64,000 bases of DNA, from contig CASEVY010000007.1 of the NCBI GenBank assembly GCA_949291515.1, positions 248,001 to 312,000 on the forward strand, written 5' to 3'. This stretch comes from an uncultured bacterium (GTDB taxonomy: Bacteria > Elusimicrobiota > Elusimicrobia > Elusimicrobiales > Elusimicrobiaceae). The notes beneath the pieces are model-generated. The model did not search any database. It worked only from the letters and a program-made list of their open reading frames with translations, and was not told the DNA's origin. Made by a program: the position numbers and the translations under genes. Positions 40,824 to 41,692 of the stretch are shown here, piece after piece (the stretch's first letter is position 1; each line of letters begins with the position of its first letter).

Positions 40824-40846
40824 ATATCGTGTAAAGATATTTTATA

Positions 40847-40876
40847 AAAAGCCCCTCTTTTTTGAGGGGCTTTTTT
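40847..40876 (+). terminator. Terminator of gatB
   Basis: The stem GCCCCTC/GAGGGGC with a T-loop is followed by six T, about 25 bases after the stop. Confidence 0.9.
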
Positions 40877-40949: not shown

Positions 40950-40976
40950 TTGACTGTTTTTTTTTTTTGATAAATT
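40950..40976 (+). promoter_or_regulatory. Promoter-like element with a 12-T tract in the spacer
   Basis: TTGACT (40950-40955) is a good -35. The spacer contains 12 consecutive T (40957-40968), and the first -10-like hexamer, TAAATT (40971-40976), stands after 15 bases. Changes in the T-run would move the spacing toward or away from 17, the usual basis of phase-variable promoters. The Cys-rich secreted protein lies downstream. Confidence 0.4.
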
Positions 40977-41067
40977 TCTTCTAAAATCGGCCTGATAAAT
41001 AAAATAAGCATTGGTTTCTATCCAGATTGACTTAATCGGGCCTTTTAATATGGGAGAGGAAAAAATT

Positions 41068-41625
41068 ATGTTTAAAAAGAAAACAATTGCTAAGGCGTTT
41101 CTGGCAGTATTTTGTTTTTTCTCATGTCTTGTTTCGCTTCGGGCCGAAAGCTGTTCGACAGCGGGTGAGGTTCAATATAAATATACGGCAAGCGGCTGCA
41201 GTTATATCACGCAGAAAAGAACATGTTGCGCGACAACGGGTCAATGGTCTGATTGGGACGCTTCGTGTCCGAGCTGCACTTCCAATCAATGCTGGAACGG
41301 CTCATATTGTGAGGATAAACAGGCAACAACCGCAACTTGCGGCGCAAATACGACCGGTACTACAGTCAGGAGAACAGCCGTATGTATAGATGGAAAGGGC
41401 TGGTCTTATGGCGAATGGGGGGAGTGCAAATGTTCCTCAACTTTATATTATCCTTCAGTACTTAGATGTGATAAATGTTGGAAGACTTATAATGGCATAC
41501 AGACTTATTATATCTTAAGCAAGTACGGCGACACTTGCTGTCAGCCTCAATGTTGTGCGACAGGTACATGTTCGGCCTCTTTCAATGGTGTTGATCCTTG
41601 CTGTCATAAAATGGACGAGTTTTAG
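41068..41625 (+). CDS. Secreted cysteine-rich protein
   Basis: 185 residues from ATG 41068, behind GGGAGAGGA; an earlier in-frame start at 41011 is less likely. A Sec signal peptide covers about 1-26 (ending SLRA). The mature part has 21 Cys, several in pairs (CC at five places), with two WSxW-like turns, GQWSDWDASC and WSYGEWGEC, recalling thrombospondin-like repeats, and SNQCWNGSYCED. The many Cys suggest disulfide-bonded surface or secreted domains. No family recognised. The T-tract promoter upstream suggests variable expression. Confidence 0.72.
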   Translation: MFKKKTIAKAFLAVFCFFSCLVSLRAESCSTAGEVQYKYTASGCSYITQKRTCCATTGQWSDWDASCPSCTSNQCWNGSYCEDKQATTATCGANTTGTTVRRTAVCIDGKGWSYGEWGECKCSSTLYYPSVLRCDKCWKTYNGIQTYYILSKYGDTCCQPQCCATGTCSASFNGVDPCCHKMDEF

Positions 41626-41628
41626 TTT

Positions 41629-41665
41629 CCGGGGTATTCCCCCGGCTCTCAACTAACCGCCCCGC
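41629..41665. repeat. Hairpin and copy 2 of the 15-mer element
   Basis: The hairpin CCGGGG/CCCCGG (41629-41634 and 41640-41645) is followed by CTCTC and then AACTAACCGCCCCGC (41651-41665). This is an exact copy of the 15-mer at 2971. Its last six bases open the terminator hairpin that follows. Confidence 0.6.
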
Positions 41666-41692
41666 GTTTTGTGAATAAACGCGGGGTTTTTT
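41660..41692 (+). terminator. Terminator of the Cys-rich protein gene
   Basis: A 10-bp stem CCCCGCGTTT/AAACGCGGGG with a seven-base loop is followed by six T. The first arm is shared with the repeated 15-mer. Confidence 0.9.

What the first reader, a model, noticed from the sequence alone, without database searches (positions are those of the whole stretch)
40950..40976. 12-T tract in the promoter spacer of a Cys-rich secreted protein
Seen: TTGACT, then a spacer with 12 T, then TAAATT with 15-base spacing. Known: slipped-strand changes in such homopolymers turn surface genes on and off in several pathogens by altering -35/-10 spacing. Inference: expression of the 21-Cys secreted protein is phase-variable. 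The current length may be a weak state, with 14 T giving the 17-base optimum.
Basis: partly seen in the sequence, partly recalled or inferred. Interest (0 to 1): 0.55.

Follow-up and report, generated by a model that had tools for sequence, protein, structure and literature searches.

The report
Shared poly-T promoters in gut Elusimicrobia
The run of 12 T's is not a one-gene oddity but one copy of a promoter that a group of uncultured gut bacteria place in front of dozens of exported-protein genes, with a T-run whose length differs from copy to copy and so could act as a random on/off dial for the cell surface, although switching has not been seen directly.

Summary
The element is one of 23 copies in this 1.5-Mb Elusimicrobiales genome; all 22 runs of 12 or more T there are this element. 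The genus has 103 copies in 6 of 18 genomes, none in the reversed-pattern control. They precede Cys-rich exported proteins (59 of 102 unique copies) or type IV pilin-like proteins (31 of 102). In the phylum 64 of 340 genomes carry the motif; one has 85 copies. When the bases before the T-run lengthen, the T-run shortens, so the spacer stays near 16: length is tuned to -35/-10 geometry. Copies with almost identical flanks differ in T number (T10 versus T12 beside 485 identical bases), so the tract changes faster than its surroundings. This supports a porA/vlp-type phase-variable promoter used genome-wide. Against: 79 of 85 copies in one genome have the same spacer, and no reads or expression data were available, so switching is inferred. 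Ordinary promoters of pilin paralogues have 17-base spacers (11 of 11 that matched), so a 17-base optimum is possible, but the usual T-tract spacer is 16.

The parts
40950..40955 (+). -35 element TTGACT
   Evidence: TTGAC is set by the search design, the sixth base is mostly T in the genus
40956..40970 (+). 15-base spacer: G, T12 (40957-40968), GA; the last T and G 40969 form the TG of an extended -10 (TG-A-TAAATT)
40957..40968 (+). poly-T tract, 12 T; paralogous copies in this genome have 11 to 14
40971..40976 (+). -10 element TAAATT; in other copies and species TAAAGT, TACAGT, TAATTT, TATTCT, TATGAT, TACGAT (all TAnnnT)
40977..41067 (+). region between -10 and start codon, with ribosome-binding-like GGGAGAGG at 41052-41059
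   Evidence: leaders diverge between copies while the promoter core is kept
41068..41625 (+). 185-aa exported Cys-rich protein, no Pfam, PDB-sequence or PDB-fold match
41659..41687 (+). intrinsic terminator-like site behind the Cys-rich gene
40846..40875 (+). intrinsic terminator-like site behind the upstream gatB gene; separates the T tract from gatB

Best explanation
The site is a sigma-70-type promoter with an extended -10, whose spacer is almost wholly a T run. Gut Elusimicrobiales use this one promoter form for dispersed families of exported proteins: Cys-rich signal-peptide proteins and type IV pilin-like proteins. Slipped-strand replication adds or removes T's, moves the spacer along 14, 15, 16, 17, 18 and so raises or lowers transcription of each gene on its own; cells of one clone would then show different mixtures of surface proteins. 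Shown here: the promoter form, its genome-wide and genus-wide distribution, the exported products, the constraint on spacer length, and length differences between almost identical copies. Inferred: slippage as the cause, variation within a population, and the effect on transcription. The window gene (spacer 15) is one base short of the commonest state and is probably weakly expressed in the assembled genotype.
For: 23 copies in the own genome, 103 in 6 of 18 genus genomes, 0 in the reversed control; 22 of 22 T12+ runs of the genome are this element. With no demand on spacer content, 20 of 20 sites and 22 of 22 sites in the own genome have pure T tracts. Downstream of 102 unique copies: 59 Cys-rich exported, 31 pilin-like, 5 other, 7 cut by contig ends. 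Spacer compensation: 1, 2, 3, 4 bases between -35 and T run go with mean T 12.60, 11.79, 11.12, 10.14, mean spacers 15.60 to 16.14. The -10 drifts between species but stays TGnTAnnnT. Instability: 6 of 6 pairs with 150 or more downstream bases at no more than 1 mismatch differ in the T run, five of them in spacer length, for example G001 T10 versus T12 beside 485 identical bases and two tandem copies in L162 with T12 versus T10 beside 654 bases; the sixth, G000 versus G001, is G-T13 versus GG-T12 with unchanged spacer. Two copies with spacer 11 (L010, L262) have interrupted frames, as expected if such spacing is dead. Cys-rich paralogues keep signal peptide and first module and diverge behind, as in surface-variant families.
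Against: G083 has 79 of 85 copies at spacer 16 and G115 38 of 60; such uniformity fits a conserved length as well as a switch, unless the assembly simply reports the commonest length in a mixed population. MutS is present, so slippage is not raised by loss of that repair gene. 34 of 84 looser within-genome pairs have the same T number. Homopolymer lengths in short-read assemblies carry error. Not every paralogue has the tract (L009, L006). No expression or read data.
Confidence: 0.6

Rival explanations
1. A fixed promoter architecture: the T run is needed for its DNA shape (stiff, tightly twisted) or for a regulator that recognises it, and the length scatter is mutational noise held near 16 by purifying selection; genes are co-regulated, not switched.
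For: Strong mode at 16 in all well-sampled genomes; 79 of 85 in G083. Ordinary pilin promoters use 17; recalled twist values for poly(dA:dT) would make a 16-base T spacer turn about as far as 17 mixed bases (inference, not tested).
Against: A shape requirement would tolerate an interrupted run, yet interrupted runs are rare (L349 is one); five of six almost identical pairs differ in spacer length, the sixth by a base change at constant spacer; about half of the copies in G000, G001 and G017 are off the mode.
Confidence: 0.3
2. The T run is the tail of a terminator or a chance AT-rich stretch, and the gene is transcribed from elsewhere.
For: AAAAACAG/CTGTTTTT can pair around the -35 (seen).
Against: gatB has its own terminator-like site 40846-40875 and the scan does not list the T run as one; the pairing is lost in the many copies with AAAAAACGC upstream while the promoter core is kept; chance is excluded by 20 of 20 pure tracts and empty reversed controls.
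Confidence: 0.04
3. The copies look alike only because gene and promoter were duplicated recently; the length differences are assembly error.
For: Many copies lie near contig ends, where assemblies break in repeats.
Against: Upstream and leader sequences are unrelated between most copies while the promoter core is nearly invariant; the same core precedes two unrelated protein families; assemblies from different studies show the same form and scatter.
Confidence: 0.06

Closest known systems
Neisseria meningitidis porA promoter (poly-G between -35 and -10; van der Ende 1995, seen only as cited in passages of PMC7864442)
   Same: Homopolymer inside the spacer of a promoter of a surface protein; activity set by spacing.
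   Different: One gene, poly-G, optimum 17. Here poly-T, 23 to 85 copies per genome, two unrelated protein families, commonest spacer 16, extended -10. Expression effect not tested here.
Mycoplasma hyorhinis vlp family (poly-A tract in the promoter of all vlp genes; passage of PMC10502178)
   Same: A multigene family of surface proteins in which each gene has its own homopolymer promoter.
   Different: vlp genes sit in one cluster (recalled); here copies are dispersed over the genome and serve pilins as well as Cys-rich proteins, in another phylum and in a genome with a MutS gene.
Treponema pallidum tpr/tprL poly-G promoters (abstract and passages of PMC7864442)
   Same: Several outer-membrane-protein promoters of one genome carry homopolymers of varying length.
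   Different: Poly-G, and in tprL within the -10 region, so -35/-10 spacing is not changed; fewer genes (recalled).

Membership tests
Promoter-spacer homopolymer phase variation (porA/vlp type) | Homopolymer between recognisable -35 and -10 elements | tested here: met
Promoter-spacer homopolymer phase variation (porA/vlp type) | Tract length sets -35/-10 spacing and the spacing is what is constrained | tested here: met
   Compensation between leading bases and T number; -10 position kept at the same distance while its letters drift
Promoter-spacer homopolymer phase variation (porA/vlp type) | Tract length differs between otherwise identical copies or isolates | tested here: met
   5 of 6 pairs with 150 or more near-identical downstream bases differ in spacer length, the sixth by a base change; copies, not isolates, were compared; G083 is nearly uniform
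Promoter-spacer homopolymer phase variation (porA/vlp type) | Reversible high-frequency change within a clone | not testable with these tools
   No reads or isolates; one genome per species held
Promoter-spacer homopolymer phase variation (porA/vlp type) | Expression depends on tract length | not testable with these tools
   No RNA or reporter data; two copies with spacer 11 have broken frames, indirect only
Promoter-spacer homopolymer phase variation (porA/vlp type) | Product exposed at the surface | tested here: inconclusive
   Signal-peptide-like or prepilin N-termini; location on the cell not tested

The most novel reading that the evidence does not exclude
Gut Elusimicrobiales run a genome-wide combinatorial switchboard: nearly every long homopolymer of T in the genome is the spacer of an exported-protein promoter, up to 85 per genome, and each cell shows its own random mixture of pilins or Cys-rich proteins. 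The same promoter form has been placed in front of unrelated gene families, and an unrelated Bacillota has arrived at the same design.
Probability: 0.5. Interest if true: 0.78.

Novelty: new variant of a known kind. Interest (0 to 1): 0.62.

Why it matters
Promoter phase variation is known mostly from pathogens and a few genes per genome. A whole uncultured commensal lineage with tens of poly-T promoters on dispersed pilin and Cys-rich genes would be among the largest such sets, and the many natural copies make spacer length versus expression directly testable in metatranscriptomes.

Tried and rejected
Terminator reading of the T run: rejected. Loss of mismatch repair as the driver: a MutS_I domain is present; MutL was not searched. 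Function of the Cys-rich protein: no Pfam family for the window protein and none for five of the other six Cys-rich proteins scanned, the sixth only at E 0.024 below its cut-off, only E 0.33 and above in PDB sequences, a model of mean pLDDT 71.7 and no fold match better than E 2; left open. Viral contigs as a source of strain variants: no match. A conserved fold of the leaders: the consensus folding returned no structure for either class and was not pursued; it may have failed on input format.

Counts and drops: one search merged two G000 copies with identical contexts near contig ends (102 unique of 103). One search lists only the first places of each genome. One search left out 19 named loci that duplicate G001, G011 and G017. 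In one search, 24 loci were given: 11 pilin orthologues gave a 17-base spacer (two of these also gave a second, shorter match), L355 also 17, L349 18, the other 11 no match. Of 85 G083 copies 35 were read downstream (15, 20): 31 pilin-like, 1 other, 3 none.

Papers: searches (Elusimicrobiota with phase variation, homopolymer, pilin, type IV pili, antigenic variation) listed no title or abstract that reports phase variation or poly-T promoters in Elusimicrobiota; some searches looked for the known mechanism. Only listings and the passages of PMC8809381, PMC10502178, PMC5084427, PMC7864442 and PMC7446861 were read. The Elusimicrobium minutum genome paper is not held.

Full report
What is there. 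The window carries TTGACT (40950-40955), G, twelve T (40957-40968), GA and TAAATT (40971-40976), a 15-base spacer; 91 bases separate TAAATT from the ATG at 41068 of a 185-aa exported Cys-rich protein. gatB upstream has its own terminator-like site at 40846-40875 and the Cys-rich gene one at 41659-41687. As a plain T run it is not beyond chance in the window; the genome-level facts below are what matter.

One of many. The window lies in contig C7 of a 1.5-Mb, 13-contig genome. The protein matches 14 further places there, two of them in one reading frame, and the 22 runs of T12 or longer in the genome all coincide with copies of the same -35/T/-10 element. Of 29 runs of T9 or longer, 23 are this element. 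Asking for TTGACT-N8..22-GATARATT without any demand for T gave 20 sites, all with pure T tracts, and none in the reversed control; TTGACN10..22TGATAAAKT gave 22 of 22 pure tracts in this genome, while the 12 genus genomes without the element gave 0 to 4 mixed-sequence matches each.

Who has it. In the genus 6 of 18 genomes have 103 copies (G000 23, G001 11, G005 6, G006 1, G011 26, G017 36). In the phylum 64 of 340 genomes match, 57 of these in two genera of one family, with 0 in the reversed control. The Cys-rich family itself is found in 6 of 60 genomes searched as relatives, own included, all in the genus.

What it drives. Of 102 unique genus copies, 59 precede Cys-rich exported proteins, 31 pilin-like proteins (GFTLIE-type prepilin start; Pfam N_methyl in the four tested), 5 something else or a broken frame, 7 end at a contig edge. 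In G083, with 85 copies, 31 of the 35 read are pilin-like. Among 20 Cys-rich proteins the signal peptide and first Cys module are kept and the rest varies.

Why it is a promoter and why spacing counts. The -10 drifts (TAAATT 65, TAAAGT 23, TACAGT 8 and others of 102; TATTCT in G083; TATGAT and TACGAT in G088 and G087) but the copies compared read TGnTAnnnT, the extended sigma-70 -10 form (recalled). Spacers over 102 copies: 11:1, 13:1, 14:5, 15:27, 16:54, 17:11, 18:2, 19:1; with 1, 2, 3, 4 bases before the T run (n 30, 56, 8, 7) the mean T number falls from 12.60 to 10.14, leaving mean spacers of 15.60 to 16.14. So selection seems to see the spacing, not the T number. Pilin paralogues with ordinary promoters in the same genus have mixed 17-base spacers in 11 of 11 orthologues that matched; 11 of the 24 loci given did not match.

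Why the length looks unstable. Six pairs of copies share 150 or more downstream bases with at most one mismatch; all six differ in the T run: G001 T10/T12 (485 identical bases), T14/T12 and T14/T10 (161), CALUXC T12/T10 (654), G011 T12/T13 (159), and G000 G-T13 against G001 GG-T12 (692), where a base differs but the spacer is the same. The three G001 pairs share members and are not independent. Two shorter pairs (107 and 91 bases) have equal T numbers. With a looser cut (90% over 60 bases, same genome) 50 of 84 pairs differ in T number.

Against. G083 holds 79 of 85 copies at exactly spacer 16; the share at 16 differs strongly between genomes (52% G000, 45% G001, 62% G011, 47% G017, 93% G083, 63% G115). 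Either G083 keeps the length by selection, or its assembly reports the commonest length of a mixed population. MutS is present. Reads and expression were out of reach, so population-level switching and its effect are inferred.

Judgement. The promoter class and its distribution are shown; tract instability is well supported; switching of expression is the best explanation (0.6) over a fixed T-tract architecture (0.3). The mechanism is of the porA/vlp kind; the scale, the dispersal and the sharing by unrelated families are new as far as the listed paper searches show.

Noticed in passing
L142, L145, L168, L173, L209, L212, L220 (WQRI, Bacillota bacterium Co191P1bin26; termite gut by recollection): An unrelated Bacillota bin has 7 fetched loci with one conserved promoter, TTGACT followed by 12 or 13 further T and GATAAAAT, of differing T number; the four with enough sequence precede exported-looking proteins, some very long. 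Looks like an independent use of the same design.
   Followed up: partly
G083 (85 copies): A gut Elusimicrobiaceae genome of 1.7 Mb with tens of dispersed pilin-like genes under one promoter form: a very large pilin repertoire.
   Followed up: partly
L013 versus L295 (G000 and G001): Two species share a 692-base stretch with at most one mismatch around one Cys-rich gene, suggesting recent exchange between species.
   Followed up: no
L036, 1611-3008: A protein of at least 466 aa with a prepilin N-terminus and 42 Cys under the T-tract promoter: it links the pilin and Cys-rich classes.
   Followed up: no
L294, L296, L299, L041, L259 leaders; fixed-promoter pilins such as L332 and L334: Pilin leaders carry a short stem-loop-like GCCC-AGCAA-GGGC just behind the -10, also as AGCC-AGCAA-GGCT in paralogues with ordinary promoters.
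   Followed up: no
L010 and L262: Two family copies with spacer 11 (T8, T9) have reading frames interrupted soon after the start: decayed gene and decayed promoter together.
   Followed up: partly
L250, L255, L274 (G017); L287, L288, L289 (G005): Some copies have no long ATG frame until about 350 to 460 bases behind the promoter: unusually long leaders or remnants of an inserted or broken first part.
   Followed up: no
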